In this document: in pieces, positions 31,570 through 43,041 of the stretch | Layout: each line of letters starts with the position of its first letter | Numbering within the stretch: position 1 is the stretch's first letter | Source: Pseudomonadales bacterium | Lineage (GTDB): Bacteria > Pseudomonadota > Gammaproteobacteria > Pseudomonadales > Azotimanducaceae | Length of the DNA stretch: 43,041 bases | NCBI GenBank assembly: GCA_028280225.1 | Contig: JANQMF010000066.1 | Location: 1-43,041, forward strand | Direction of reading: 5' to 3' | Translations under genes and position numbers: made by a program | The notes under the pieces: generated by a model | What the model saw: only the letters and a program-made list of their open reading frames with translations | Databases searched by the model: none | What the model was told of the DNA's origin: nothing

Positions 31570-32406
31570 ATGAGTTCAATTAACGTCATACCCAGCGGGC
31601 AGGCCTGTGGCGCGCAAGTCACCGGTTTAGACCTGTCAAAGCCATTGGACAGCCCTACCCTGGCTGCGGTCAAAGCCGCGTGGCTTGAGCATCATGTACT
31701 TGCCTTTCCCAAGCAGAAATTAAATGGTGATCAGCTTGAGGCATTTGCCCAACAATTTGGCACATTGGGGGAAGATCCGTTTTTTAACCCCATTGCCGGT
31801 AGAAAGTACACCGCTGCGGTGCGGCGTGAAGCGGCGGACACCAATAAAATATTTGCTGAATATTGGCATTCCGATTGGAGCTTTATGCCCAACCCCCCCT
31901 GCGGTACCGTCCTTTACGCACTCGATATTCCACCCCACGGTGGGAACACGGAATTTTCCAACCAGCATCTTTCATTTGAGTCCATGCCCGACGCTATGAA
32001 AGCCCGGTTTGATGCACTCCAGGCCATTCACTCACCTAAGCTGGGTTATTCACCAAAGGGGACTTACGGCAACGTGGAAAAAAACGGCGCCATGGATATC
32101 CGCCCGTCAGAAGAAGCGGAGCATATCTACCAAACCCACCCCCTGGCACCGGCACACCCGGAAACCGGGCGCAAAGGGTTTTTAAGCGGAATATCCTACA
32201 TTGTCGGTTTTGCGGGGATGGGCGAAGAAGAGGCTTACAAACTTATTCTTGAACTTAACAACTGGCAGAGCAAAGAGGAGTTTATCTACAGCCACAAGTG
32301 GGAAAACGATATGTTGGTGCTGTGGGACAATCGCAGCGTGGTGCACCGGGCAACCGGAGGGTATGAAGGTTATCGCCGTGAATTACATCGTGTTACGGTA
32401 TATTAG
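31570..32406 (+). CDS. TauD/TfdA family Fe(II)/2-oxoglutarate-dependent dioxygenase
   Basis: 278 residues. The iron facial triad is visible: His100 and Asp102 in EYWHSDWSF and His259 in SVVHRA, with Arg270 (RREL) in place to bind 2-oxoglutarate. The opening GQACGAQVTGLDLSKPLD is typical of the TauD/TfdA group. These enzymes release sulfite from taurine, open phenoxyacid ethers or hydroxylate other acids, coupled to 2-oxoglutarate decarboxylation. No taurine or alkylsulfonate transporter lies nearby, so the substrate is open. It converges on tcuB with 91 bp between stops. Confidence 0.92.
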   Translation: MSSINVIPSGQACGAQVTGLDLSKPLDSPTLAAVKAAWLEHHVLAFPKQKLNGDQLEAFAQQFGTLGEDPFFNPIAGRKYTAAVRREAADTNKIFAEYWHSDWSFMPNPPCGTVLYALDIPPHGGNTEFSNQHLSFESMPDAMKARFDALQAIHSPKLGYSPKGTYGNVEKNGAMDIRPSEEAEHIYQTHPLAPAHPETGRKGFLSGISYIVGFAGMGEEEAYKLILELNNWQSKEEFIYSHKWENDMLVLWDNRSVVHRATGGYEGYRRELHRVTVY

Positions 32407-32497: not shown

Positions 32498-33595
32498 CTA
32501 ACGATTTGCTTCCTCAGCAAATCGCACAAGCGCGGCCAAACGATAAACCGCATGCACAAATTTGCTGTAGGGCAACATGACAAAGAAACTCAGGACCAGC
32601 CCCAGGTGAACAACCAGCAACATTCCCATCGCTGCTGTCTCGCGCAAGGCCAACAGCAATAGACCACTCAGACTGACCAGAAAGAGCATGATCAAAAAAG
32701 CGAAGTCCATGCCGTAATAATCAACCTGCATCGGCGTTGTGTCGCTGCGCATCTTATTCCAGATCAACCCCACAGGACCCACCAGCAAGCCGATACCCCC
32801 AACGGTGCCCAGCAAAACCGGCAGGCTGAAAAAGGGATACGGCGCCACCCGGCCAAGACCATAGTCGTACACCGTGGCCACGCAGGTTGCGGCAAAACAA
32901 AGCAGAAAGCCCCACATGGTCAATTGATGGAAGATTCGCCGCTGGTTGGAAAATCCGTCGTCCACGCTGCTGCAACCCTCACCATGACCGCCATCCAGGT
33001 ATTTGAGTGTGCCCGCGTTAACACAGCCGCGCCATACGGATTTTAGACTGGGCATGCCCTTGCCTGTTGCCTTCCAGAATTTCACCACACTCACGCACAT
33101 GGCCACCACGCTGAAGCCAAAGGTCAGCCCGGCCACCACAACCATCAACGTGTGACCAATGATCTGATAAAAGGATCCCGGACCGCTGAAGCGGCCAAAC
33201 AGTACATTGTTCGATATCAGGACCAGGGCAAGGGCCATGGTCAACGTGATCAGCACCGCGCTGACCAGCGATACCAGCAGGCCGTTACGCTGAAAGGCGC
33301 GTGCAAAGGCACCGGGCCAGGCATATTTTTCATAGGTGGCGATACGTGTGTCTGTCAACACCGCAGGGACGTTAACGTCAAAGGTGTGGGGCGGAGCGTA
33401 CTGACAGTCGTGATAACAGGCAGTACAGTTGTGGCACAAGTTGGCCAGGTAGTCGAAATCCTGATCAACAAAGGTGCGCCTTAACGACATCGCTTGAAAA
33501 GTGGCACACAAGCCTTCGCAGTACCTGCACGCATTACAGATGTCCATTACCCGCCTGGCTTCCTGAGTTGCCGGGGCATCTGTGGCAATGATCAT
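32498..33595 (-). CDS. tcuB: Tricarballylate utilisation membrane Fe-S protein TcuB-like
   Basis: 365-residue membrane protein with two [4Fe-4S] motifs near the N-terminus (C20-x2-C23-x2-C26-x3-C30 and C54-x2-C57-x2-C60-x3-C64) followed by about six transmembrane helices with His residues suited to haem. In Salmonella, TcuB passes electrons from the FAD enzyme TcuA to the quinone pool, reoxidising its flavin. Its ATG overlaps the tcuA stop by 4 bp, so translation is coupled. It is the last gene of the seven-gene leftward run. The close relative CobZ fuses both parts; here they are separate, as in tcuAB. Confidence 0.9.
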   Translation of the reverse strand: MIIATDAPATQEARRVMDICNACRYCEGLCATFQAMSLRRTFVDQDFDYLANLCHNCTACYHDCQYAPPHTFDVNVPAVLTDTRIATYEKYAWPGAFARAFQRNGLLVSLVSAVLITLTMALALVLISNNVLFGRFSGPGSFYQIIGHTLMVVVAGLTFGFSVVAMCVSVVKFWKATGKGMPSLKSVWRGCVNAGTLKYLDGGHGEGCSSVDDGFSNQRRIFHQLTMWGFLLCFAATCVATVYDYGLGRVAPYPFFSLPVLLGTVGGIGLLVGPVGLIWNKMRSDTTPMQVDYYGMDFAFLIMLFLVSLSGLLLLALRETAAMGMLLVVHLGLVLSFFVMLPYSKFVHAVYRLAALVRFAEEANR

Positions 33596-34989
33596 AAGCT
33601 GCTCCGGTGGGCCGCAGCACTTGCTCCGGCAAGGCGCCCGAAGACCCCGCCAATGGTCATGCCCGTGCCCGCGCAGTAGCCCTGACCGAGTATATTGCCT
33701 GCCATGACTTCACCCGCTGCATAAACATTGTCAGCACCCTGGCTGCCGGAGAAATGTACCCGCGCCTTGCCGTCAACCTTGACACCCAAATAGGTAAAGG
33801 TAATGCCGGGTTTAAGGGGATAAATGGCATACGGCGGTTTGTCCAGTTTCAACGCCCAATGAGATTTAGGCGGCAACAGGCCTTCGGTATGACAGTCATC
33901 CAGCACGTCGGGGTTATAATTACCGGCAACCACCGCTGCGTTAAACGCCTCCACCGTGGCGGCCAGGGCCGCACCGTCAAGCCCAACTTTTTCCGCCAGC
34001 GCTTCAATGGAATCGGCAGAAATGGAAGGAAACACGGACGGCATAAAATTCTCCGCCACCTTGGCATCAATAACCGCATAAGCAATCTGCTCAGGCTGAC
34101 CGGCAATCAGGCGCCCCCAGATGGCATAACGTTTGGGCCAGAAGTCTTCACCTTCATCATAAAAGCGTTTGCCCTGGGTATTCACCACAAGACTGAAACA
34201 GACACAATCCAGGCGCGTGACAATGCCACCGTCAAACTTGGGGCCCCGGGCATCAATGGCCACCGCATGGCACTGGGTGGGATCGCTGACGGTCTGCACC
34301 CCCTGACCCATCAGGCAGCGGAGCATGGTGCCGGTGTTATACGGGGTGCCTCGGATCAGGAAGTTGTCCGCCGCACTCCCCCATACCTCTCTCATCCAGC
34401 CGGTATTAGCCTGAAAGCCGCCACTGGCCACCACCAGCGCCCGGGCTTTGATCTCGAAGGTATAGCCGCGATTAACCACCACGGCGGATTGAAATCCACC
34501 GGTGTTGAAGTTTAAATCCCGGGCTTCGGTATCGTAAAAAATCTTCACACCCAGTTTGTCAGCAGTGCGGTACTGGGCATTGAGCAGCGCCTTCCCGCCC
34601 CCCAGAAAAAAAGCGTTGGTTCTACCCAGGCTGAGCGTGCCACTCAAGGCAGGCTGAAAACGCACCCCCTGCTCCTGTAACCAGCCGAGCAACGGATAAC
34701 TTTCCCGGATGGTGAGGCGCGCCAGTTCTTCATTGATTTTGCCACCGGTCACCCGCAGCAGATCTGTCCAGAATTCTTCTTCGCAATAGCTGTCGGACAG
34801 GGTTGCCGTTGGCCCGGGATGCATGGCTCTGAGATTGCGGGTATGGCGGGTATTGCCCCCACGCATAAAGTGCGGCGCATGCTCCAGCAGTACCACGTCG
34901 GCACCGGCCCGGGCGGCGGTAATCGCAGCACACAGGCCGGCATTCCCACCACCAACAACAAGTACATCCGTGGTTGCCGGCACATTCAT
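33592..34989 (-). CDS. tcuA: FAD-dependent tricarballylate dehydrogenase TcuA-like
   Basis: 465-residue flavoprotein of the fumarate-reductase/succinate-dehydrogenase group. VVGGGNAGLCAAITAARAG (residues about 11-29) binds FAD; GGNTRHTRNLRAMHPG is characteristic of TcuA; the C-terminus closes the FAD site with DNVYAAGEVMAGNILGQGYCAGTGMTIGGVFGRLAG. In Salmonella the enzyme oxidises tricarballylate to cis-aconitate, which enters the citric acid cycle. Here it follows a TctCBA transporter and precedes tcuB. Related enzymes use other polycarboxylates, so tricarballylate itself is likely but not proved. Confidence 0.9.
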   Translation of the reverse strand: MNVPATTDVLVVGGGNAGLCAAITAARAGADVVLLEHAPHFMRGGNTRHTRNLRAMHPGPTATLSDSYCEEEFWTDLLRVTGGKINEELARLTIRESYPLLGWLQEQGVRFQPALSGTLSLGRTNAFFLGGGKALLNAQYRTADKLGVKIFYDTEARDLNFNTGGFQSAVVVNRGYTFEIKARALVVASGGFQANTGWMREVWGSAADNFLIRGTPYNTGTMLRCLMGQGVQTVSDPTQCHAVAIDARGPKFDGGIVTRLDCVCFSLVVNTQGKRFYDEGEDFWPKRYAIWGRLIAGQPEQIAYAVIDAKVAENFMPSVFPSISADSIEALAEKVGLDGAALAATVEAFNAAVVAGNYNPDVLDDCHTEGLLPPKSHWALKLDKPPYAIYPLKPGITFTYLGVKVDGKARVHFSGSQGADNVYAAGEVMAGNILGQGYCAGTGMTIGGVFGRLAGASAAAHRSSL

Positions 34990-35032
34990 CTAGCGTGTTA
35001 TCTCCATTGTGTCTGTCTTCAGGCGGCCGCCG

Positions 35033-36532
35033 TCACGTCCGGGCACCCCGGGTCAGGGCATCGACCAGCCGGTTGCCGAATACGGACAACACCAGTAAAC
35101 CCAGAATGCCCAACGCAATTGGCCGTTCCAGTACATAACTCCACTGGCCACCGCTGATTTGGTAGGAGTAGATCATGGAATCTTCCGCCATGGTGCTGAG
35201 CAATATACCAATGACCGCCGCGGGTACGGAGTAGTCGTAGCGCTTAAACAGCCAGCCCAGGAGCGAAAAGACCAGCACCGTGATAGGACCGCGAAGATCT
35301 CCGGTCAGACCAAATGAACCAAATACCGCCAGGGACAGCACCGATGGTACCAGATAATTCATCGGCACCCTGACCAGATTGGCAAGTATCGGTATCAACA
35401 ACAACCCCAGGCCGATGAGGAGAAACGCCTGGCCAAAATTTGCCAGAATAACCGCATAGACCACATCCGCCTCTTCGCGAATGAATTGCGGTCCGCCGGT
35501 GATATTGTGCATGGCAAATGCCGCCAGCATCACCGCGGTGGCCCCACCACCCGGAATACCAAGGGCCAGCAGCGTAGCCATGGATCCGGCTTCCGACGTG
35601 CTGTTAGCAGCTTCGGAAGCGACCACTCCGCGTGGATTGCCGCGGCCAAAGGATTCCGGTTCAGCGGCACGCCGTTTGGTGAATATGTAGGACAACAGAT
35701 TGGCCACCGAAGACCCTACCCCGGGAATGGCACCCACAAAAACCCCAATAAGGCTGCCTCTGGTGAGAATAACCGGGTCTGCTGTTGCGCGTTTAAATCC
35801 GCTTAGAATCTGGCGCACGTTGACGGTGCGCGCGGCGCTGTCCTCAACCAGGTAGTTGCTCTTAGCCAGGCGAAACAGTTCCGACGCGGCAAACATACCG
35901 ATCATGGCAGGAATGGCCGGCACGCCATCCAGCAGATAGGGGCTGCCGAAAGTCCCCCGAGCGACACCCGCCTCGCTGTAGCCGATGGTGCCGATTAACA
36001 AACCCATTAACCCCGAAATCGCGCCGCGCAGCAGGCTGCCGCTGCTTAAACTGCCAATCAGGGTAATACCCCAGAGGATGACTACCGCCATCTCCAGGGG
36101 CCCCACCTTAAGCACCAGCTTGGAAATGGGATTGATCAGCAAAAATAATATGGCATAACCGATGATCACCCCGATACAGGAAGCTGCCAGGGCTGTCCCC
36201 AGGGCCAGGTTGTGCTGTCCCTGTCTTGCCATGGGATAACCGTCAAAAGCGGTGGCGATGGCTGATGATGTGCCGGGAATGTTCATCAGAATCGCCGGAA
36301 TACTGCCGCCGAAGCTGCCGCCGGTGAAAATGGCGGTAAGAAATAACATGGCCTGCATAAAGTCCATGTACAGCGTCATGGGCAGAAAAATGGCCATGGC
36401 CATGGAGATTTGCAGTCCAGGCACCGCGCCAAATAACAGGCCGATGGCAATACCCGGGATGACAATGAGCCAGGGTGTGCTGTCGGAAAACAACATGTTC
36501 AACGCGTCCAGCAAGGCGGCGGTGTCGATCAT
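35033..36532 (-). CDS. tctA: Tripartite tricarboxylate transporter, large permease TctA
   Basis: 499-residue inner-membrane protein with about 12 hydrophobic segments. Family signatures are visible: GAVPGLQISMAMAIFLPMT, GGSFGGSIPAILMNIPGTSSAIATAFDGYPMARQGQ and the repeated form GVVASEAANSTSEAGSMATLLALGIPGGGATAVML. It forms the solute channel of the TctCBA secondary transporter. The frame runs 46 codons further upstream inside tctB, but ATG 36532 overlaps the tctB stop as ATGA and gives the standard family length, so it is preferred. It is followed by tcuA after 43 bp. Confidence 0.95.
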   Translation of the reverse strand: MIDTAALLDALNMLFSDSTPWLIVIPGIAIGLLFGAVPGLQISMAMAIFLPMTLYMDFMQAMLFLTAIFTGGSFGGSIPAILMNIPGTSSAIATAFDGYPMARQGQHNLALGTALAASCIGVIIGYAILFLLINPISKLVLKVGPLEMAVVILWGITLIGSLSSGSLLRGAISGLMGLLIGTIGYSEAGVARGTFGSPYLLDGVPAIPAMIGMFAASELFRLAKSNYLVEDSAARTVNVRQILSGFKRATADPVILTRGSLIGVFVGAIPGVGSSVANLLSYIFTKRRAAEPESFGRGNPRGVVASEAANSTSEAGSMATLLALGIPGGGATAVMLAAFAMHNITGGPQFIREEADVVYAVILANFGQAFLLIGLGLLLIPILANLVRVPMNYLVPSVLSLAVFGSFGLTGDLRGPITVLVFSLLGWLFKRYDYSVPAAVIGILLSTMAEDSMIYSYQISGGQWSYVLERPIALGILGLLVLSVFGNRLVDALTRGART

Positions 36533-37023
36533 GAGATCAGGCTCACATGGCTGAGAATCAACATAGGCATCGGATAAGGCAGCATGGTGGCAAAAAAGAT
36601 TGAGATAAGGGATGCAAAGACAAAGGCATACGCCAGCAGCCACAGCCATCTGCGTTCGCCATGCAGCCACAGAAATGCCCCAATAAACAGAAAAGTCCCC
36701 ACGTCAAAACCCAGCCAGTTAAGGGACAACACGTAAAGACTGAAAAGCACCATAACCGGGAGCACGTCAGCGACCCTATCTTTTGGCTCTGTCTCGTCTT
36801 CAACAAGGTCTTCAACGGGACTGCGCAGTTGGCGAATCAGCAGGACAAACTGGATGGCGCAGCAGATCAGAATGAGCGCGGAAACCGGCAGCACCAGAAT
36901 AAGGTTCAACAAATGCGCCGACGCATCAATGGCGGATGCACAGTACAAGACAACCAGGCCGGCCAGTACAAGCAACACCAGCAGATCAGCAACGCGCTCT
37001 TTTTGCGGGGTTGGGGATGACAT
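36529..37023 (-). CDS. tctB: Tripartite tricarboxylate transporter, small permease TctB
   Basis: 164 residues with four hydrophobic helices (VADLLVLLVLAGLVVLYCAS, ILVLPVSALILICCAIQFVLL, ADVLPVMVLFSLYVLSLNWLGF, WLWLLAYAFVFASLISIFFA), the TctB layout. A charged loop (EDLVEDETEPKDR) lies between helices 2 and 3. TctB pairs with TctA in the inner membrane. It begins 2 bp after the tctC stop and overlaps tctA by 4 bp. TctB proteins vary much in sequence, so the call rests on topology and position. Confidence 0.88.
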   Translation of the reverse strand: MSSPTPQKERVADLLVLLVLAGLVVLYCASAIDASAHLLNLILVLPVSALILICCAIQFVLLIRQLRSPVEDLVEDETEPKDRVADVLPVMVLFSLYVLSLNWLGFDVGTFLFIGAFLWLHGERRWLWLLAYAFVFASLISIFFATMLPYPMPMLILSHVSLIS

Positions 37024-37025
37024 CC

Positions 37026-38009
37026 TCAGAAGTTCTCTAACAGATAGGAATAGTCTTTGAATACCTCAAACGTCTTCAGCATGGTTGCCGCAGATTCTTC
37101 AGGGCCAACCCAACGACGGCCAATGGAGGCCTCATCCAAGGTTCGAATCAGCTCAGCATGTTCCAGGGCTTTCCTGGTGGCTGCTACCAGTTTGGCAAAA
37201 CGCTCCGGGTAGTTGCGCTTAAACTCAGCAGAGGTAGCAAGGCCCCGGATGGTGCCGGGTAGTACAGGGACCCGGCAATCCGTTGGTTGCAAAGCTTCGG
37301 TCAACGTGGGGGCTGCCCACAGTGGATTAACTTGTTTGCTGGCAATGGCAAGGGGCGTTAAGTACTCACGAATACTCTCTGTCCCTTCAGCACTGATGAC
37401 AACAAAGTCAACCACGTGGCCGGCCACTGCTGCCCGCGGCAGCCCGCCGCCATTGTAGGTCACCAGATTGAGGTTTTCCTGGGGAATACCACATTTCTCT
37501 AACAACAGGCGCGCAATCAGATGCCCCCCGGATCCCCTGACCACCGCCCCGCGAACGGTTTTTGGTTTTTCCCGGATAGCGTTCAGCAATTTTGGCAGGG
37601 TGTTGTACTCGGAATCCCGGTTAACGGCAATCAGGTCCTCATCAAACCACTGCAAATTAACGTAGGCAAAGTCGTCAATGGCATAATGGGCATTACCTTC
37701 CAGAATGGTATTGGCAAGATAGGGGGAAAAGCTGGAAGCCATCACTGTATAACCATCGTGGGGCTGATCCAGCACAAAGTTTGCAGCCAACAGGGTACCG
37801 GCCCCTTTTTTGTTGATGACCTGAATAGGCTGTCCCAGGGCGTTGCCGATATAGATGGACATGGCTCTGGCCATGCGGTCGGTGCTGCCACCCGGGCCAA
37901 AGGCCACCACCATCGTTAAAGGCCGCTCCGGGTAGGTGTCAGCAATACTCAGCGCGGAACAGAGTACCGTCGAAAGAAGCAGCCACAGCGGCGTGCGCCT
38001 TTTTTTCAT
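37026..38009 (-). CDS. tctC: Tripartite tricarboxylate transporter, periplasmic binding protein TctC
   Basis: 327-residue periplasmic solute-binding protein of the Bug/TctC family. The signal peptide is MKKRRTPLWLLLSTVLCSALSIA with cleavage before DTYPERPLTMVVAFGPGGSTDRMAR, the normal mature start. NKKGAGTLLAANFVLDQPHDGYT and the GGGLPRAAVAGHVVDF region line the carboxylate-binding cleft in relatives. It captures the substrate and presents it to TctAB. Its start shares one base with the stop of the ModA-like gene (TGATG). Ligand not readable from sequence. Confidence 0.93.
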   Translation of the reverse strand: MKKRRTPLWLLLSTVLCSALSIADTYPERPLTMVVAFGPGGSTDRMARAMSIYIGNALGQPIQVINKKGAGTLLAANFVLDQPHDGYTVMASSFSPYLANTILEGNAHYAIDDFAYVNLQWFDEDLIAVNRDSEYNTLPKLLNAIREKPKTVRGAVVRGSGGHLIARLLLEKCGIPQENLNLVTYNGGGLPRAAVAGHVVDFVVISAEGTESIREYLTPLAIASKQVNPLWAAPTLTEALQPTDCRVPVLPGTIRGLATSAEFKRNYPERFAKLVAATRKALEHAELIRTLDEASIGRRWVGPEESAATMLKTFEVFKDYSYLLENF

Positions 38010-38809
38010 CAGGTCTTTCCATCCGCAACCGGTTCGAGCCCGGTCTGTCTGATAACATCGGCTGCCGGACTGGAGGACAGAAAGTCCATCAACAGCCTGG
38101 CCCGGCGTACGTCGGTGGCCATCACCGTGATACCCGCGGAGAACACAGTCACTTTCTGATACTCATCCGGAATAGGGCCGACAAATTCCGCACCCGGTAT
38201 CGGCAATATCTCGCTGATCTGCTGAAAACCCACTTCAACCTCCCCCCGTGCCACTACCGCGGCAACCCGTTCACTGAGGATACGTTTCGATTTTGGCGCA
38301 AGTTCTTCCCACAAGCCCAGCCGGGGTAACAAATCTGTGGAAAGGTAGGTACCGCTGGCACTGGCGGAATAACCAAAAGACTTAACCCTGCGCAAGGCCG
38401 TCACAAAGGCACCGGTTGTACTGATATCCGGGTGGATTGCCCCGGTTTGCACCGCCATACCAATCAAAGACCTGACCAGATCGCGTCTTTCTTCAGCCCT
38501 TACGTACCCCCGGTGCGTTAGATTGTCAAGGGACGGTCTGGAGAGGATGATGATATCGAAGTGTTCTCCCCGATGCAGCCGTACCGGGATGGAATCCGGT
38601 GCCCCGCCCGAGGATGAGCCATAGGCGGTGTGCAGGTTAATCCCCGTTTCGGCTTTAAAAAGGGGTGCCAGCTGATCATATGCGGCGGCAAAACCACCGG
38701 AGGTGATGACCCTGATGGCACCCTGTTCAGCGTCGTTGCCCCCGGCACGCGGGCTGCCACCGGCAAAAACCACCAGCAGGAAAACACCAATTCTCAGGGC
38801 CTTAAACAT
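38009..38809 (-). CDS. Periplasmic binding protein, ModA-like fold
   Basis: 266 residues with a signal peptide (LRIGVFLLVVFAGGSPRAGG) and a type II binding-protein fold like that of molybdate-binding ModA: IRVITSGGFAAAYDQLAPLFKAETGINLHTAYGSSSG, then FDIIILSRPSLDNL, and a C-terminal VFSAGITVMATDVRRARLLMDFLSSSPAADVIRQTGLEPV. No ModB permease or ModC ATPase is nearby. It lies between the TonB receptor (82 bp) and tctC (1-bp overlap), so it is probably part of the carboxylate uptake system, as a second binding protein or a co-sensor. A molybdate role looks unlikely from context; ligand unknown. Confidence 0.82.
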   Translation of the reverse strand: MFKALRIGVFLLVVFAGGSPRAGGNDAEQGAIRVITSGGFAAAYDQLAPLFKAETGINLHTAYGSSSGGAPDSIPVRLHRGEHFDIIILSRPSLDNLTHRGYVRAEERRDLVRSLIGMAVQTGAIHPDISTTGAFVTALRRVKSFGYSASASGTYLSTDLLPRLGLWEELAPKSKRILSERVAAVVARGEVEVGFQQISEILPIPGAEFVGPIPDEYQKVTVFSAGITVMATDVRRARLLMDFLSSSPAADVIRQTGLEPVADGKT

Positions 38810-38891
38810 GATCGGTCACCATAATCACCGCCGCGCCAATCCCAACCCGGGAGCGGTAGATACACATCACCCCGCTCCCACCACCGGTCGC

Positions 38892-41606
38892 CTAGAATGT
38901 GGCTTTAAGGCCAACATAGATCTGGCGGCCCCTGGGGTCGTGGACTTCCGTGTCGAACAAGGGCCGTGCATCAATCTCCGGTGGGTCCTCATCAAACAGA
39001 TTGGTCACCCCTACGGTCACGGTCAGCTCCTCGTTATCGAAGTTGCCCAACACATCAGTAAAGGTGTAGTCGTAGCGCAGATCTACCGTGGTATCACCGT
39101 CGACATCCATTCCCGACTGATCATCTTCGTACTCGCCGATATGACGAATACTGATATTGGCCAGATGCTGGCCCGCCACCAGGGTTGCCCCAACATTCAT
39201 CTTAAAATCCGGGGTTGAGCCAAAGCCATTGCCGTTGTTGCGGCTGCCCTTAATGTCCCCAAATTCAGACGAATCGTATTCGGTAATGATGGTTGCGGTG
39301 GCGTCCAGTTCGATACTACCCCAGGAAAAGTCTCCCAAGGCGTAGGCTGCCGCAACATCAAACCCTTCAGCCTGGGCATCACCTCTGTTCAAAAAGCCGG
39401 TGAAAACCGCATTCAGCTGGCCAAACTCGTCACGCAACACTCTGTTGGCAGGCAGGTCACCGGCAAATACAGCATCCACAATCGACTGAGCGCTACCGCC
39501 GGGAAGGATCAGATCTTCGTAGTCGTACATCCAGTAGTCCACGGATAAGTCCAGTCCAAATTCTGCCCTCCATACTAACCCAATATTGAAGTTCTCAGCA
39601 GATTGAGGTTCCAGATCCGAGGAGCCTTCGGTAAAGACGGTGACATTAAAGCTGCCCGCGCCGGGATTGGCCGGGTCGCTCACCCCTGCATTCCCCACCG
39701 AACCGGCAACCTGCCGGATAGACGGTGCCTGGAACGAGGTACCCCAGGAAGTACGCAGGGAGAAGCTGTCGCTGATATCCCAGCGCAGGGCAATTTTCGG
39801 ATCCGTGGTGTCGCCACCCCTGTCGTCGTAATCCTCGTAACGGACCGCAAGCTGGGCCTCAATCCGGTCGGTCAGCGGCAGAATCGCTTCAGCAAAGAAT
39901 GCATATACATCCTGATCACCGTCCACAATGCCCTCAATCTCACCCCGGGCGTTGGTGCCATTCTGCCGGCGGCTGTCGGGTATGTTCTCATAAGTCATAT
40001 CCCGGTACTGACTGCCCACGGCAATTGCAATGGTGCCGCCACCCAGCTCAATGCCCGTGTCGCCACTTAAGATGATTTCCGCCACATCCTGGGTAACTTC
40101 GCCGCTGTCGTTAATGGTCAGGGAAAACAGCGCAATATCCTGAGCGGTGTTGCCAAACTGAGAAACACCGTCCTTGGGCGAGATTCCCTGGGGGTCAACC
40201 AGGGCGGTGCCAAAGGGGTTCCAGTTACCGCTGTCGATGGCAGCCTGATACAGGTCCACATCATAGTCTCGCGGCTGACTTCGAGTATACTCGTTGGTTG
40301 ACGAGGTATAGGTTGCATTCAGCACCCAGTTGTCGTTGAACTGATAGTCAAAACCAACAACAAAACGCAGGTTGGTGAATGTAGTATCAATGTCTGCCGC
40401 GCTGTCACCATCAAACCTTCTACCCAGCGGGCGGGCGCGGACAATAACCGGACTGGCGGTGTTTACCGCCGGATCCCAGGCGCTTGGGCCGATATACTCA
40501 AGGGTGCCGGCGTTATCGACAAAAAAGTTATAAGGATTGTCCGCGCCGACCAGGAAGCCGCCGTCGGTTGTGGTCCGGCGCAGAACCGCCCCACCAAGCC
40601 CATCCCTGATCTCGTTACGGGAATAACCCACCTCACCAAATACGTTAAGCTGATCGCTGAGGTCAACATCAAACTGAGAGAACACTTGAATACGCTCTTC
40701 CTCGGCAATCAGGCGGCGCTGGTCAATAAAGGGATACCGGCAATTGGTGGTGCCGCCCCGCAGGTGACCGCCCGCGGCTTCACAATCAGGGTCTGCCAGG
40801 GTACCGGCGGTTCCGCTGCGCTCAAAGCCACCCGCGCCGTCCGGTACCGCCAGGTCAATACGCCCGGGGGAGCCGGTTCCGGAGCTGAACACTGCACCAA
40901 TGCCGTCTGCATTGGCGGAATCCCGGTCTTCGATAAAGTCGAAGTCGCCGCGGAAGTTACCGTCCTGGTCATAATAGTTGACGAATAGAGAAAAACTGCC
41001 CTGATCAAAGGACTGCCCAAAGGCCACACCCAACTGCTGGGATTCGTGGGTGGAATCACGATATTCGGTGGTCAGCTCAAAGCCTTCGAAGTTCTTACGG
41101 GTAATGATGTTAACCACCCCGGCCACAGCCTCTGATCCGTAAGTGGCGGAAGCCCCGTCAGTCAACACCTCGATGCGCTCAATCATGTTAACGGGAAACT
41201 GGTTGGAATCGGTAAAAAGCTGCCCTGTGTCATCAGTAACAGGAGACAGGCCGCCTCTTCTGCCGTTCACCAGGGTTAACGTTGAACCGATACCCAGCCC
41301 GCGAAGGGAAAACTGCGAAACCCCTTGCAGCGCATTCTGCCGGTTGGATGTTTGCGAGCCGGAGTTCACGGTCAGCCCTTTAAACAAGTCCTGAAGTTTC
41401 ACCGTGCCGGTGTTCTGCAGCTCTTTCTCACCAACGGTTTGCACCGGTGAAATTGCATCGTAGTCCCTTTTCAAACGTAAATTTGACCCGGTAACCACAA
41501 TTTCTTCAATGACACCCTCTTCAGCAGCAACTGATACTGGCGTAATCGTTAAACCCACAATCATCCCAAGCAGCACGCCTGGTAATAAAGTTAAGTGTTT
41601 TTTCAT
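38892..41606 (-). CDS. TonB-dependent outer-membrane receptor
   Basis: 904 residues. Signal peptide ends near SVAA; the TonB box is EEIVVTGS (about 34-41). The plug domain has VKLQDLFKGLTVNSG, QFSLRGLGIGSTLTLVNGRR, NMIERIEVLTDGASATYGSEAVAGVVNIITRKNFEG (about 70-175). The 22-strand barrel follows and ends in Phe. Energised uptake by TonB-ExbBD is expected. It heads the operon carrying a ModA-like protein, TctCBA and TcuAB, which implies a carboxylate, or a complex or conjugate of one, too large or scarce for porins. Receptors of this type are mostly annotated for siderophores or glycans, so the ligand is an inference from neighbours. AGGAG lies about 11 nt before the ATG. Confidence 0.95.
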   Translation of the reverse strand: MKKHLTLLPGVLLGMIVGLTITPVSVAAEEGVIEEIVVTGSNLRLKRDYDAISPVQTVGEKELQNTGTVKLQDLFKGLTVNSGSQTSNRQNALQGVSQFSLRGLGIGSTLTLVNGRRGGLSPVTDDTGQLFTDSNQFPVNMIERIEVLTDGASATYGSEAVAGVVNIITRKNFEGFELTTEYRDSTHESQQLGVAFGQSFDQGSFSLFVNYYDQDGNFRGDFDFIEDRDSANADGIGAVFSSGTGSPGRIDLAVPDGAGGFERSGTAGTLADPDCEAAGGHLRGGTTNCRYPFIDQRRLIAEEERIQVFSQFDVDLSDQLNVFGEVGYSRNEIRDGLGGAVLRRTTTDGGFLVGADNPYNFFVDNAGTLEYIGPSAWDPAVNTASPVIVRARPLGRRFDGDSAADIDTTFTNLRFVVGFDYQFNDNWVLNATYTSSTNEYTRSQPRDYDVDLYQAAIDSGNWNPFGTALVDPQGISPKDGVSQFGNTAQDIALFSLTINDSGEVTQDVAEIILSGDTGIELGGGTIAIAVGSQYRDMTYENIPDSRRQNGTNARGEIEGIVDGDQDVYAFFAEAILPLTDRIEAQLAVRYEDYDDRGGDTTDPKIALRWDISDSFSLRTSWGTSFQAPSIRQVAGSVGNAGVSDPANPGAGSFNVTVFTEGSSDLEPQSAENFNIGLVWRAEFGLDLSVDYWMYDYEDLILPGGSAQSIVDAVFAGDLPANRVLRDEFGQLNAVFTGFLNRGDAQAEGFDVAAAYALGDFSWGSIELDATATIITEYDSSEFGDIKGSRNNGNGFGSTPDFKMNVGATLVAGQHLANISIRHIGEYEDDQSGMDVDGDTTVDLRYDYTFTDVLGNFDNEELTVTVGVTNLFDEDPPEIDARPLFDTEVHDPRGRQIYVGLKATF

Positions 41607-41624
41607 GTACCCCTCTCCTAAGTG

Positions 41625-41661
41625 GTATTGGTATCTGTTCTGTTGGTCGAGCTACCAATAC
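41625..41661 (-). other. Stem-loop at the 5' end of the TonB-receptor leader
   Basis: Perfect 9-bp arms GTATTGGTA (41625-41633) and TACCAATAC (41653-41661) with a 19-nt loop. If transcription starts about 7 nt after the minus-strand TATACT, the stem forms the very 5' end of the mRNA, ending 18 bp before the start codon. It could stabilise the mRNA, or be an operator as DNA. Confidence 0.4.
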
Positions 41662-41666
41662 TTTCG

Positions 41667-41733
41667 AGTATACGAAGGCCTAGCTTTCAATTAGCTTTCA
41701 ACACCACTTTTTGCCTGCCGGGCTGTGTATACT
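41667..41733. promoter_or_regulatory. Divergent promoter region with tandem response-regulator site
   Basis: TAGCTTTCAA occurs twice with an 11-bp period (41681-41690 and 41692-41701), the geometry of OmpR/PhoB-family binding sites. TATACT (41728-41733) on the plus strand and TATACT (41672-41667) on the minus strand are possible -10 boxes for the response regulator and the TonB operon. Neither has a good -35 (CACTTT, GCTAAT), as in activator-dependent promoters; the repeats sit next to or over both -35 positions. Confidence 0.5.
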
Positions 41734-41769
41734 GACAACGCCCGCATTTATCGGGAGATTGAGGGGCTT

Positions 41770-42438
41770 ATGCGCGCGTTAATTGTTGAGGACAACCGGG
41801 AAATTTCCGAGTGTATGGACGAGTGCCTGCGCGACATGGACATTGTTTCGGATTGCTTCCACGATGGCCGCAACGTTTCCGAAGCTTTCCGTACCGTTGG
41901 CTACGATATCCTGATACTTGATCTGAACCTTCCGGATGCTGATGGGCTCAGCATTTTAAGAGACATCCGCGCGCGCGGCGTGAACACGCCGGTGTTAATT
42001 GTTTCCGCCCGGGCCCGCATAGACGAACGCGTTAGCGGATTGGATCTGGGTGCTGACGATTATCTGGTTAAACCTTTTGACCTTGATGAGTTCGAAGCCC
42101 GGGTCAGAGCGCTGCTGCGCCGCCACCAGGACACCAAATCGCCGGTATTCCACCTTGGCGAACTGGCCTTCGATCAGGTAACCAGAGAGGTCACTGTCAA
42201 TGACCAGCCCATCGATCTTGCGCCCCGGGAACGGGCGGTGCTCGAAGTTTTAATCCGCCAGAGCGGTACGGTACTGAGCAAAGAAAAAATTGCTGAACAT
42301 GTTTTTAATTTCGACGACGAGGCCGGTATCACCTCAATAGAGTTATACGTGCATCGCCTGCGCAAAAAACTTGCCGCCAGCTCGGTACAAATAGTGACGC
42401 AAAGAGGTTTAGGCTATGCGCTGCAGCTGGCTGAATAA
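41770..42438 (+). CDS. tctD: OmpR-family response regulator, TctD-like
   Basis: 222 residues. Receiver domain: acidic pocket VEDN near residue 8, phospho-acceptor Asp51 in LILDLNLPDADG, switch Ser in IVSAR and Lys in YLVKPFD. The C-terminal winged helix (about 125-222) shows LAPRERAVLEVLIRQSG, ITSIELYVHRLRKKL and RGLGYAL. ATG 41770 is preferred over the ATG 15 codons upstream: GAGGGG lies just before it and the predicted -10 box lies after the upstream start. It is followed by a kinase gene and diverges from a TctCBA-containing operon, the arrangement of tctDE. Transcription activation of that operon is likely. Confidence 0.88.
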   Translation: MRALIVEDNREISECMDECLRDMDIVSDCFHDGRNVSEAFRTVGYDILILDLNLPDADGLSILRDIRARGVNTPVLIVSARARIDERVSGLDLGADDYLVKPFDLDEFEARVRALLRRHQDTKSPVFHLGELAFDQVTREVTVNDQPIDLAPRERAVLEVLIRQSGTVLSKEKIAEHVFNFDDEAGITSIELYVHRLRKKLAASSVQIVTQRGLGYALQLAE

Positions 42439-42453
42439 AACGGCCGGGCCAAC

Positions 42454-43041
42454 ATGACCTTGCTGTCAACCCTCAAAGCCCGCCTCCTCGCCTGGTTAAT
42501 TGTACCGCTGTTGTTTTTGTCCACTGCCCATGTTGCCACCACCTACATAGATACCCGGGCCACCTCCGAGCAGATCTTCGACAAGCTGCTGGTAACCCTG
42601 GCGTTGAGCATCAATGAATATGCCCTGGCATCCGGCGGGGACCTTCTGACCGACGATGTTCTGGAACTCATCCGCACAACCACCAACGAAAACCTGTACT
42701 ACAAGGTGATTGGTCCGGACAGCGCGTTTTTGATGGGCTATGACGACATTCCCGAACCCCGGGGTGGTCTGGAAGTACTGGACGGCCATATTCAGTTTTA
42801 CGATGCGGTGTACTTTGACCAACAAGTGCGTGTGCTTGCCTTGTCCAGCCTTGTTGACCGGCCTGACTACGCCGGATGGATGACCACCTACGTGGCTCAA
42901 ACAATCAACGACCGTGGAGAATTGGTCTGGTCAACAGTTGTGAACAGTATTGCGCGGGTGATGGCTCTGGCCGTGACCACCGTTGGTTTACTGGCTGTTG
43001 GCATCATCCTGGGACTTAAACCCCTTTCCAAATTGCAGGAG
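42454..43041 (+). CDS. tctE: Sensor histidine kinase, TctE-like, N-terminal part (runs out of window)
   Basis: 196 codons are present and the frame is still open at the last base. ATG 42454 is 15 bp after the response-regulator stop. A first transmembrane helix (LLAWLIVPLLFLSTAHVA) and a second (MALAVTTVGLLAVGIILGL) bracket a periplasmic domain of about 140 residues with LYYKVIGPDSAFLMGYDDIP and FYDAVYFDQQVRVLAL. This matches the two-component sensor N-terminal domain of the TctE/QseC group. It ends at GLKPLSKLQE, the start of the HAMP linker. The catalytic His and ATPase domains are outside the window. Confidence 0.88.
   Translation, partial: MTLLSTLKARLLAWLIVPLLFLSTAHVATTYIDTRATSEQIFDKLLVTLALSINEYALASGGDLLTDDVLELIRTTTNENLYYKVIGPDSAFLMGYDDIPEPRGGLEVLDGHIQFYDAVYFDQQVRVLALSSLVDRPDYAGWMTTYVAQTINDRGELVWSTVVNSIARVMALAVTTVGLLAVGIILGLKPLSKLQE

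What the first reader, a model, noticed from the sequence alone, without database searches (positions are those of the whole stretch)
32498..43041. Single locus for outer-membrane uptake, import, oxidation and sensing of a tricarboxylate-like compound
Seen: seven closely spaced leftward genes (TonB receptor, ModA-like, TctC, TctB, TctA, TcuA, TcuB), with overlaps or 2-82 bp gaps, diverge from a TctD/TctE-like pair. Known: TctCBA imports tricarboxylates; TcuAB oxidises tricarballylate to cis-aconitate in Salmonella, where import is by the MFS protein TcuC and control by the LysR-type TcuR. Inference: here that module has been rebuilt with a TonB receptor, a tripartite transporter and a two-component system, so the substrate may be a larger or complexed polycarboxylate.
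Basis: partly seen in the sequence, partly recalled or inferred. Interest (0 to 1): 0.72.

Follow-up and report, generated by a model that had tools for sequence, protein, structure and literature searches.

The report
Receptor-coupled tricarboxylate scavenging operon
A draft gammaproteobacterial genome carries one operon that appears to pull tricarboxylic acids of the aconitate/tricarballylate kind through the outer membrane with an energised receptor, import them and feed them to central metabolism under its own sensor; the receptor-sensor-transporter set recurs in four other bacteria, so it looks like a real variant of a known nutrient system, for which I found no description.

Summary
TBDR, ModA-like, TctC, TctB, TctA, TcuA and TcuB lie head to tail (gaps -4 to 82 bp) and diverge from TctD/TctE. 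The window is a whole contig; the rest of TctE starts contig C166, followed by an orphan TctC-like gene (TctC2). (1) Receptor, TctDE, TctC2 and TctCBA occur together in four other genomes (Porticoccaceae x2, an uncultured gammaproteobacterium, Alteromonadaceae UBA2620); their receptors form one clade. (2) A direct repeat GAAAG-N6-GAAAG plus a -10 lies just upstream of the receptor in the window and three relatives; the full pattern occurs once in the 4.44-Mb genome, and the repeat recurs three times in a locus not used to find it. (3) The 'ModA-like' protein is not ModA; its relatives often sit beside tricarboxylate genes. I propose a periplasmic aconitate isomerase. (4) A larger or complexed substrate is untested; aconitate/tricarballylate, free or chelated, fits the genes best. 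TcuAB is the variable part. Closest known: Pseudomonas opdH-tctCBA/tctDE, with a TonB receptor replacing the porin. Substrate, transport and isomerase activity are inferred.

The parts
32498..33595 (-). tcuB, Fe-S/membrane electron-transfer partner of TcuA
   Evidence: TIGR02484 430.7 bits over cut-off 246.6; PRK15033 445.6 below cut-off 524; overlaps tcuA by 4 bp
33592..34989 (-). tcuA, FAD-dependent tricarballylate dehydrogenase
   Evidence: NF006130 666.5 bits (cut-off 369), TIGR02485 571.9 (372.55)
35033..36532 (-). tctA, large membrane subunit of the tripartite tricarboxylate transporter (ATG at 36532 overlapping the tctB stop preferred to GTG at 36670)
   Evidence: PF01970 398 bits; best plasmid homologue 71% (Vibrio pelagius) aligns from residue 47 of the longer ORF; start context
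36529..37023 (-). tctB, small membrane subunit
   Evidence: PF07331 47.9 bits
37026..38009 (-). tctC, periplasmic binding protein of the transporter
   Evidence: PF03401 46.9 bits; its PDB matches are TTT/Bug-type binding proteins
38009..38809 (-). SBP_bac_11 protein, ModA fold but not ModA, hydrophobic N-terminus (no signal-peptide predictor run); proposed periplasmic aconitate isomerase (Ais-like)
   Evidence: PF13531 116.6 bits, ModA model below cut-off; model pLDDT 88.7, best matches ModA folds at 15-22% identity; family contexts
38892..41606 (-). TonB-dependent receptor, first gene of the operon
   Evidence: PF00593 and PF07715; one clade with receptors of other TctDE loci, 99/96
41667..41699 (-). 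proposed TctD operator plus promoter: GAAAG-N6-GAAAG-N11-TATACT
   Evidence: 1 in window, 0 in 100 shuffles; full pattern once in the whole 4.44-Mb genome, backwards control 0; same design just upstream of receptors in L081, L082, L085; repeat before the receptor also in L181, weaker -10
41770..42438 (+). tctD-like OmpR-family response regulator (ATG at 41770; ORF from GTG 41725)
   Evidence: PF00072 and PF00486; best NCBIfam model TctD, 232 bits, below cut-off 337, matches from residue 16
42454..43041 (+). tctE-like sensor kinase, N-terminal part, cut by the contig end; remainder at G000:C166:7-783 (+), followed by orphan tctC2 (L167:720-1895 as an ORF)
   Evidence: 2CSK_N 85.5 bits; C166 match; TctC2 PF03401 30.5 bits, cut-off 27

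Best explanation
A TctDE-controlled operon for scavenging aconitate/tricarballylate-type C6 tricarboxylates at low concentration. TctE (periplasmic 2CSK_N sensor, perhaps helped by the orphan binding protein TctC2) detects the acid and activates TctD. TctD binds the 11-bp direct repeat just upstream of the -10 and switches on the leftward operon TBDR-ais-tctCBA-tcuAB. The receptor, powered by TonB, carries the acid (free or metal-chelated) through the outer membrane. The Ais-like protein isomerises trans- to cis-aconitate in the periplasm. TctC hands the acid to TctAB. TcuA/TcuB oxidise tricarballylate to cis-aconitate, which enters the TCA cycle through aconitase. Shown here: genes, order, family scores, recurrent linkage, receptor clade, operator/promoter pattern. 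Inferred: regulation in vivo, substrate, receptor cargo, isomerase activity.
For: Family scores. Operon-like spacing. Receptor+TctDE+TctC2+TctCBA in four other genomes. Receptors of these loci are one clade (99/96; 98 with L181 added). TctC2 found at E<=1e-10 in 4 of 13 genomes searched, the four in which I saw such a receptor beside TctDE; not in the other 9, not all of which were searched for receptors. Operator GAAAG-N6-GAAAG: 15 in 1.556 Mb of loci against 1-3 for each of 12 other spacings; 5 of the 15 carry a -10 at 9-12 bp, four just upstream of a receptor and one just upstream of tctD in L082; full pattern once in the own genome; the repeat three more times in L181, before tctC, before the small gene X and before the receptor. 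TctC2 is 47% identical to the TTT receptor of a locus with PrpF, tcuAB and TctDE (L057). SBP_bac_11 homologues: tcuAB within 4 kb in 4 of 80 loci, TctC close by in 28 of 80 (11 downstream, 17 upstream, no overlap), aconitase-like hits within 10 kb in 4 (one a 147-bp fragment) and ATP-citrate-lyase-like genes in 3; MFS+LysR and no ABC genes in three enteric plasmids. P. aeruginosa TctD controls itself and opdH-tctCBA, an outer-membrane gene with tctCBA (PMC4513871, PMC10865840, passages). No OprD-family match in the 96.7%-complete genome and 43 plug domains.
Against: No transcript, binding or growth data. The Ais identity rests on gene neighbourhood plus a recalled paper (Yuhara 2015, not held); its sequence could not be compared. 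46 of 80 SBP_bac_11 loci show none of the markers scored, and one homologue (L173) sits beside ABC genes. No TcuB was seen in the four other receptor loci, and the TcuA-like protein of L082 passes one of two models. TctC2-like proteins also occur without a receptor (L057, L059, L061, L065), so they are not receptor-specific. The consensus promoter scan does not list the proposed promoter, which lacks a -35, and its total is no higher than in shuffles. The -10s in L181 are weaker (4, 5, 4 of 6) and spaced 8-9 bp by the script's best fit. G863's SBP gene lies on another contig. Most loci come from draft MAGs.
Confidence: 0.65

Rival explanations
1. A citrate (or metal-citrate) uptake operon: TctDE/TctCBA keep their classical citrate role, the receptor takes up Fe- or Mg-citrate, and TcuAB is a side activity.
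For: TctDE responds to citrate and controls the porin OpdH and TctABC in P. aeruginosa (PMC10865840, passages); the receptor's nearest solved structures are siderophore and cobalamin receptors.
Against: Citrate needs neither TcuAB nor an isomerase. The SBP_bac_11 gene sits directly before tctC in the window and in L079-L085, L087 and L092. Foldseek nearness at 10-15% identity does not tell ligands. No ferric ABC gene is among the genes of the locus.
Confidence: 0.2
2. Uptake of aromatic or larger polycarboxylates (lignin-derived or gallate-pathway intermediates), with TctC2 and the SBP_bac_11 protein as extra binding proteins.
For: TTT-type receptors for terephthalate exist (8hkb and others, weak matches); SBP_bac_11 homologues beside galB/ligK (L074, L135); a TonB receptor for a lignin-derived aromatic is known (seen only as a reference in PMC13253662).
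Against: No aromatic ring-cleavage gene is among the genes I identified in the window locus or receptor loci (many flanking genes were not identified); TcuAB and the link of TctC2 to tcuAB/PrpF loci point to aliphatic tricarboxylates.
Confidence: 0.1
3. The SBP_bac_11 protein is only a solute-binding protein (a second receptor or sensor), not an enzyme.
For: Fold is a standard ModA-type clamshell; it lies close to a TctC in 28 of 80 loci; L173 has it beside ABC genes.
Against: It pairs with single-polypeptide MFS carriers and LysR with no ABC genes in three enteric plasmids. Against ModA sequences it has a five-residue insert (with invariant I74, P75) followed by invariant R77, and Gln 197 where E. 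coli ModA (1amf) has Tyr. It never co-occurs with PrpF in 24 tcuAB loci (6 SBP, 6 PrpF, 12 neither; a biased sample).
Confidence: 0.35
4. The receptor is a chance neighbour with its own unrelated cargo.
For: This genome holds 43 plug-domain genes; the receptor tree is not congruent with the TctD/TctA/TctC trees; the receptor's next relatives in G045/G046 show no tct transporter genes in the stretches read (G045's contig ends just after the receptor).
Against: Five linked occurrences, one receptor clade and a shared operator pattern.
Confidence: 0.08

Closest known systems
Pseudomonas aeruginosa opdH-tctCBA with tctDE (PMC4513871, PMC10865840; passages)
   Same: TctD controls its own gene and an operon of an outer-membrane protein plus TctCBA for tricarboxylate uptake.
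   Different: Outer-membrane protein there is the porin OpdH, here an energised TonB receptor of another fold; here an Ais-like protein, TcuAB and an extra TctC2 are added. The TctD motif of that paper is in a figure and could not be compared.
Salmonella tcuRABC tricarballylate utilisation (recalled; seen only as references in PMC12338516)
   Same: TcuA and TcuB.
   Different: MFS carrier TcuC and LysR regulator TcuR replaced by TctCBA, TBDR and TctDE; no MFS or LysR gene in 32498-42438.
Bacillus velezensis tarRAB / B. thuringiensis tbrAB trans-aconitate systems (PMC11495376: abstract, section 27, passages)
   Same: Proposed logic: sensor, importer, aconitate isomerase feeding the TCA cycle.
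   Different: TarA/TbrA are PrpF-family isomerases and TarB is an MFS importer; here the candidate isomerase is a periplasmic SBP-fold protein.
Aconitate isomerase Ais of Pseudomonas sp. WU-0701 (Yuhara 2015, not held; enzyme mentioned in PMC8871043 passages; periplasmic, about 262 aa and ModA-like are recalled)
   Same: Size, export and family, as recalled.
   Different: Sequence not available here, so homology to it is untested; neighbours there unknown to me.
Bordetella BctC-BctE sensing by a TTT binding protein (recalled, not read)
   Same: A TctC-type protein may help the TctE-type kinase; here tctC2 directly follows tctE.
   Different: TctC2 is an orphan binding protein separate from TctC, and in L081 and L180 it follows the receptor and gene X instead.

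Membership tests
Tripartite tricarboxylate transporter (TctCBA) | TctA, TctB and TctC subunits together | tested here: met
   PF01970, PF07331, PF03401 over cut-offs, adjacent genes
Tripartite tricarboxylate transporter (TctCBA) | transports tricarboxylates | not testable with these tools
   no ligand data
TcuAB tricarballylate dehydrogenase | TcuA and TcuB equivalog models over cut-off, adjacent genes | tested here: met
   NF006130, TIGR02485, TIGR02484 passed; PRK15033 (subfamily) not passed
Salmonella-type tcuRABC operon | MFS TcuC and LysR TcuR beside tcuAB | tested here: not met
   no such gene between 32498 and 42438
TctDE two-component system | TctD equivalog score | tested here: not met
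   best model TctD, 232.2 bits, cut-off 337
TctDE two-component system | adjacent to and divergent from the tct operon, kinase with 2CSK_N domain | tested here: met
   TctE-TctD pairs homologous to it beside the receptor in L081 and L082, and beside tctC2-receptor in L085
opdH-tctCBA type operon | outer-membrane uptake gene under the same TctD as tctCBA | tested here: inconclusive
   same repeat before the receptor and before tctC in L181; binding not tested
opdH-tctCBA type operon | OprD-family porin | tested here: not met
   TonB receptor instead; no PF03573 match in the genome
ModA molybdate-binding protein | TIGR01256 equivalog score and neighbouring ModB/ModC | tested here: not met
   34.8 bits, cut-off 62.5; no ABC genes in the locus
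Aconitate isomerase Ais (ModA-like type) | sequence homology to Pseudomonas sp. WU-0701 Ais | not tested
   paper and sequence not held
Aconitate isomerase Ais (ModA-like type) | gene linkage to tricarboxylate catabolism | tested here: inconclusive
   34 of 80 loci with at least one scored marker, 46 with none; tcuAB in 4 of 80; no background rate was measured
TonB-dependent receptor | plug plus beta-barrel domains | tested here: met
   PF07715, PF00593; the 50 Foldseek hits shown are outer-membrane receptors of this fold

The most novel reading that the evidence does not exclude
A TonB receptor family dedicated to small C6 tricarboxylates (or their chelates), controlled by TctD and tied to an orphan TTT binding protein, delivers trans-aconitate into a periplasm where a solute-binding-protein-fold enzyme isomerises it before inner-membrane import: an 'isomerise in transit' nutrient route through two membranes.
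Probability: 0.32. Interest if true: 0.75.

Novelty: new variant of a known kind. Interest (0 to 1): 0.56.

Why it matters
TonB receptors are usually credited with iron complexes, vitamins and glycans. A receptor clade tied to a tricarboxylate transporter and its sensor by linkage and a shared operator gives a testable case of energised uptake of a small, central-metabolism acid (or its chelate), and a ligand prediction for one clade of a large orphan receptor class. It also names a candidate function for ABC-less 'ModA-like' proteins that databases call molybdate- or substrate-binding. In the listings (titles and starts of abstracts) of five searches of the open library I saw no paper linking a TonB receptor to TctCBA or TcuAB in one operon; of the listed papers I opened three, by passages only. 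Subscription journals are mostly outside that library.

Tried and rejected
Chance neighbourhood: rejected by recurrence in other genomes. Unique event in this genome: looked so at first. TcuB occurs in 15 of 390 genomes of the order (self included) and none of the other 14 neighbourhoods, read over up to 20 kb, holds the receptor; the SBP gene occurs in 4 of 195 relatives and 3 of 369 genomes of the class, self included (different E-value limits, 1e-8 and 1e-15). Viral contigs: nothing. ModA/ABC reading: rejected on score and context. Arcobacter paper (passages): the TonB genes and tctABC there are separate loci sharing ECF regulators, so no precedent. A receptor substrate from structure: model pLDDT 72 and matches at 10-15% identity, not informative. 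The stretch in the 82-bp receptor/SBP gap folds no better than shuffles and shows no T run. Of the other 10 of 15 GAAAG-N6-GAAAG matches, L081:5021 has a TATTAT 11 bp on, and the remaining nine (L080, L082:11626, L083, L100, L129 x4, L167:13332) score 0-4 of 6 for a -10. L124 and L037 are the same contig and both were in that count. In one search the markers are tblastn hits with thresholds of my own, and no background rate of such markers was measured. The other two of 80 loci with receptor-like hits (L106 35%, L120 24%) were not followed. PMC10865840 and PMC4513871 were read as passages only.

Full report
WHAT IS THERE. The window is a complete contig (C33, 43,041 bp) of a 4.44-Mb, 242-contig draft genome, 96.7% complete, 0.51% contaminated. 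GC is even along it (0.51-0.58 in 2-kb steps) and no tRNA was found. On the minus strand lie TBDR (38892-41606), SBP_bac_11 (38009-38809), tctC, tctB, tctA, tcuA and tcuB, with junctions of 82, -1, 2, -4, 43 and -4 bp if tctA starts at 36532. Diverging on the plus strand are a TctD-like regulator and a kinase with a 2CSK_N sensor domain that runs into the contig end. A kinase from a relative (L081) matches C33 over residues 3-193 and the start of contig C166 (bases 7-783) over residues 197-452, so the two contigs are most likely neighbours. The next gene on C166 is an orphan TctC-family protein, TctC2, only 29% identical to TctC over 76 residues.

CLOSE RELATIVES LACK IT. The receptor's best matches in 97 related genomes (self included) are 41% identical, in G046 and G045, and no tct transporter gene lies beside them in the stretches read; G045's contig ends just after the receptor. 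The SBP gene is in 4 of 195 relatives at E<=1e-8 and 3 of 369 genomes sampled from the class at E<=1e-15, self included in both. In G056 (62%) its contig ends inside that gene. TcuB is in 15 of 390 genomes of the order, self included; none of the 14 other neighbourhoods has the receptor or the SBP gene in the up to 20 kb read.

BUT THE UNIT RECURS. The plasmid collection gave TctA homologues of 71% (Vibrio pelagius, beside TctDE and tctCB only) and 68% (Halomonas, unannotated record). One scan of the genome-contig collection with an SBP alignment kept the best 80 loci. In 8 of 80 the SBP gene is in a locus with a TctA of at least 60% identity; in 3 of 80 (L081, L082, L085) there is also a TctD of at least 55% and a receptor of at least 40%. 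L083 has a remote receptor on a very long branch beside a second TTT. In L080 (Woeseiaceae) SBP-tctCBA and a TauE/SafE-family gene are followed by TcuA (68%) and TcuB (60%); no receptor was found in the 10 kb upstream. A TauE/SafE-family gene follows tctA in eight loci scanned (L080-L085, L087, L181) but not in the window. TctC2 was then sought in 13 genomes: found in 4 (G858=L081, G859=L082, G862=L085, G863=L086) and not in 9. In G859 it lies after the receptor and gene X; in G863 a new contig (L181) shows tctCBA-tauE, receptor (43%), X, TctC2 (37%), TctD, TctE. X is homologous in L081, L180 and L181; I did not see it in the window genome's locus. So receptor + TctDE + TctC2 + TctCBA are linked in five genomes, counting the window, with the window's set split over two contigs. 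The SBP gene is in the same locus in four of the five and on another contig in G863. No TcuB was seen in the other four; L081's contig ends within the tauE-like gene just after tctA. L082 has a TcuA-like flavoprotein in that place (passes NF006130, not TIGR02485).

TREES. In a tree of 35 receptors the four from TctDE loci are one side of a branch (99/96), sister to G045/G046. With L181 the five hold together (98, quick tree of 9). Within the group the receptor pairs window+L085 (100), whereas TctD pairs window+L082 (90) and L085+L181 (96), and TctA/TctC pair L081+L085 (98/99): the receptor seems to have been exchanged between loci. The trees are small and quick.

OPERATOR. Upstream of the receptor, on its strand, the window has GAAAG-CTAATT-GAAAG-N11-TATACT. 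The same design lies just upstream of the receptor in L081 (N11, TATACT), L082 (N10, TATACT) and L085 (N11, TAAACT; here tctC2 stands between tctD and the site); L082 has a second copy pointing at tctD, L081 a second one further up. Over 1,555,948 bases of loci the repeat with a 6-base gap occurs 15 times, against 1-3 for each other gap from 1 to 13; with a -10 it occurs 5 times, four before a receptor and one before tctD, against 0-1 for other gaps. In the whole own genome the full pattern occurs once, here; the backwards control 0; 0 of 100 shuffles of the window. The bare repeat was not counted genome-wide; one more copy is on C166 (L167:13332). L181, fetched afterwards, has three copies of the repeat, before tctC, X and the receptor, with -10 fits of 4, 5 and 4 of 6 at spacers 8, 9 and 8. 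At random positions a -10 of at least 5 of 6 at 10/11-bp spacing has probability 0.007, at least 4 of 6 0.06. The layout (11-bp direct repeat in place of the -35) is what OmpR-family activators use (recalled). P. aeruginosa TctD controls tctD and opdH-tctCBA (PMC4513871, passages); its motif is a figure and could not be compared.

THE 'MODA-LIKE' PROTEIN. It fails the ModA model and has no ABC partners in the locus. Its model (pLDDT 88.7) is a ModA-type clamshell. Against ModA sequences it has a five-residue insert containing invariant I74 and P75, followed by invariant R77, and Gln 197 where 1amf has Tyr (ModA's ligand residues are recalled). Homologues sit with MFS+LysR in Salmonella, Cronobacter and Pantoea plasmids, with MFS-LysR-tcuAB in A. 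baumannii, with ATP-citrate-lyase-like genes in Paraburkholderia and Caballeronia, with galB/ligK in Neorhizobium and Rhodanobacteraceae, and in L084/L087 upstream of PEP-mutase/isocitrate-lyase-family, citrate synthase and aconitase genes. 46 of 80 loci show none of the markers scored and one plasmid homologue has ABC neighbours. A binding protein that partners a one-piece MFS carrier is odd; an exported enzyme is not. I recall that the aconitate isomerase of Pseudomonas sp. WU-0701 is a periplasmic protein of about 262 aa of this kind; the paper is not held and only the enzyme's existence was seen (PMC8871043, passages). In 24 tcuAB loci in hand, 6 have this gene, 6 have PrpF (the family of the known TarA/TbrA isomerases, PMC11495376, passages) and none has both; the sample is biased because five of the six (L075, L080, L104, L117, L130) were fetched through this gene.

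TCTC2. It is 47% identical over its length to the TTT receptor in L057, a locus with PrpF, tcuAB, a TctD-like (45%) and a TctE-like (26%) gene, and 42% to that in L059. So TctC2 belongs with receptors of tcuAB-linked transporters, which points to the same ligand class; it also shows that such proteins are not confined to receptor loci. Next to tctE it could be a co-sensor (as recalled for Bordetella BctC-BctE) or the periplasmic acceptor for receptor cargo.

THE RECEPTOR'S NEED. No OprD-family match was found in the genome and 43 plug domains were. Replacement of a specific porin by a TonB receptor is thus plausible, whether the cargo is the free acid or a chelate. I find no evidence that the substrate is larger.

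VERDICT. Real, recurrent, and on sequence evidence regulated as a unit; mechanism and substrate inferred. A new variant of the TctDE/TctCBA uptake system.

Noticed in passing
L089:9263-10705, L090:9263-10702, L096:9272-10693: Two SBP_bac_11 copies head to tail in Rhodospirillaceae MAGs, in single ORFs of 530-555 aa: a tandem or fused pair.
   Followed up: no
L083:1772-9849: A remote TonB receptor, a second TctCBA-type set and a DpiA/HTH_64-type two-component system directly upstream of SBP-tctCBA: a second way of pairing a TonB receptor with a TTT.
   Followed up: partly
L081:8186-8800, L180:4698-5279, L181:8979-9491: Small protein X (170-204 aa) with a hydrophobic N-terminus, conserved near receptor and TctC2; no Pfam family over cut-off in the two copies scanned.
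   Followed up: partly
L167:13332 (minus strand): A GAAAG-N6-GAAAG repeat about 110 bp upstream of another TonB receptor ORF on contig C166, without a -10 at the expected place.
   Followed up: no
window 38810-38891: A GC-rich hairpin between receptor and SBP gene without a T run; fold not better than shuffles.
   Followed up: partly
L185:3138-9524: Paracoccus yeei plasmid: tcuAB directly behind an ABC cassette whose permease is annotated as iron transporter.
   Followed up: no
L084:13728-20543, L087:13722-20690: SBP-tctCBA followed by a TauE-family gene and genes resembling a 2-methylcitrate cycle (PEP-mutase/isocitrate-lyase family, citrate synthase, aconitase; in L087 also a PrpF start).
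   Followed up: partly
L082:14405-15889, L083:14347-15825: TcuA-like flavoprotein with no TcuB hit behind it; passes NF006130 but not TIGR02485.
   Followed up: partly
window 31570-32406: TauD-family dioxygenase gene convergent with tcuB, outside the operon.
   Followed up: no
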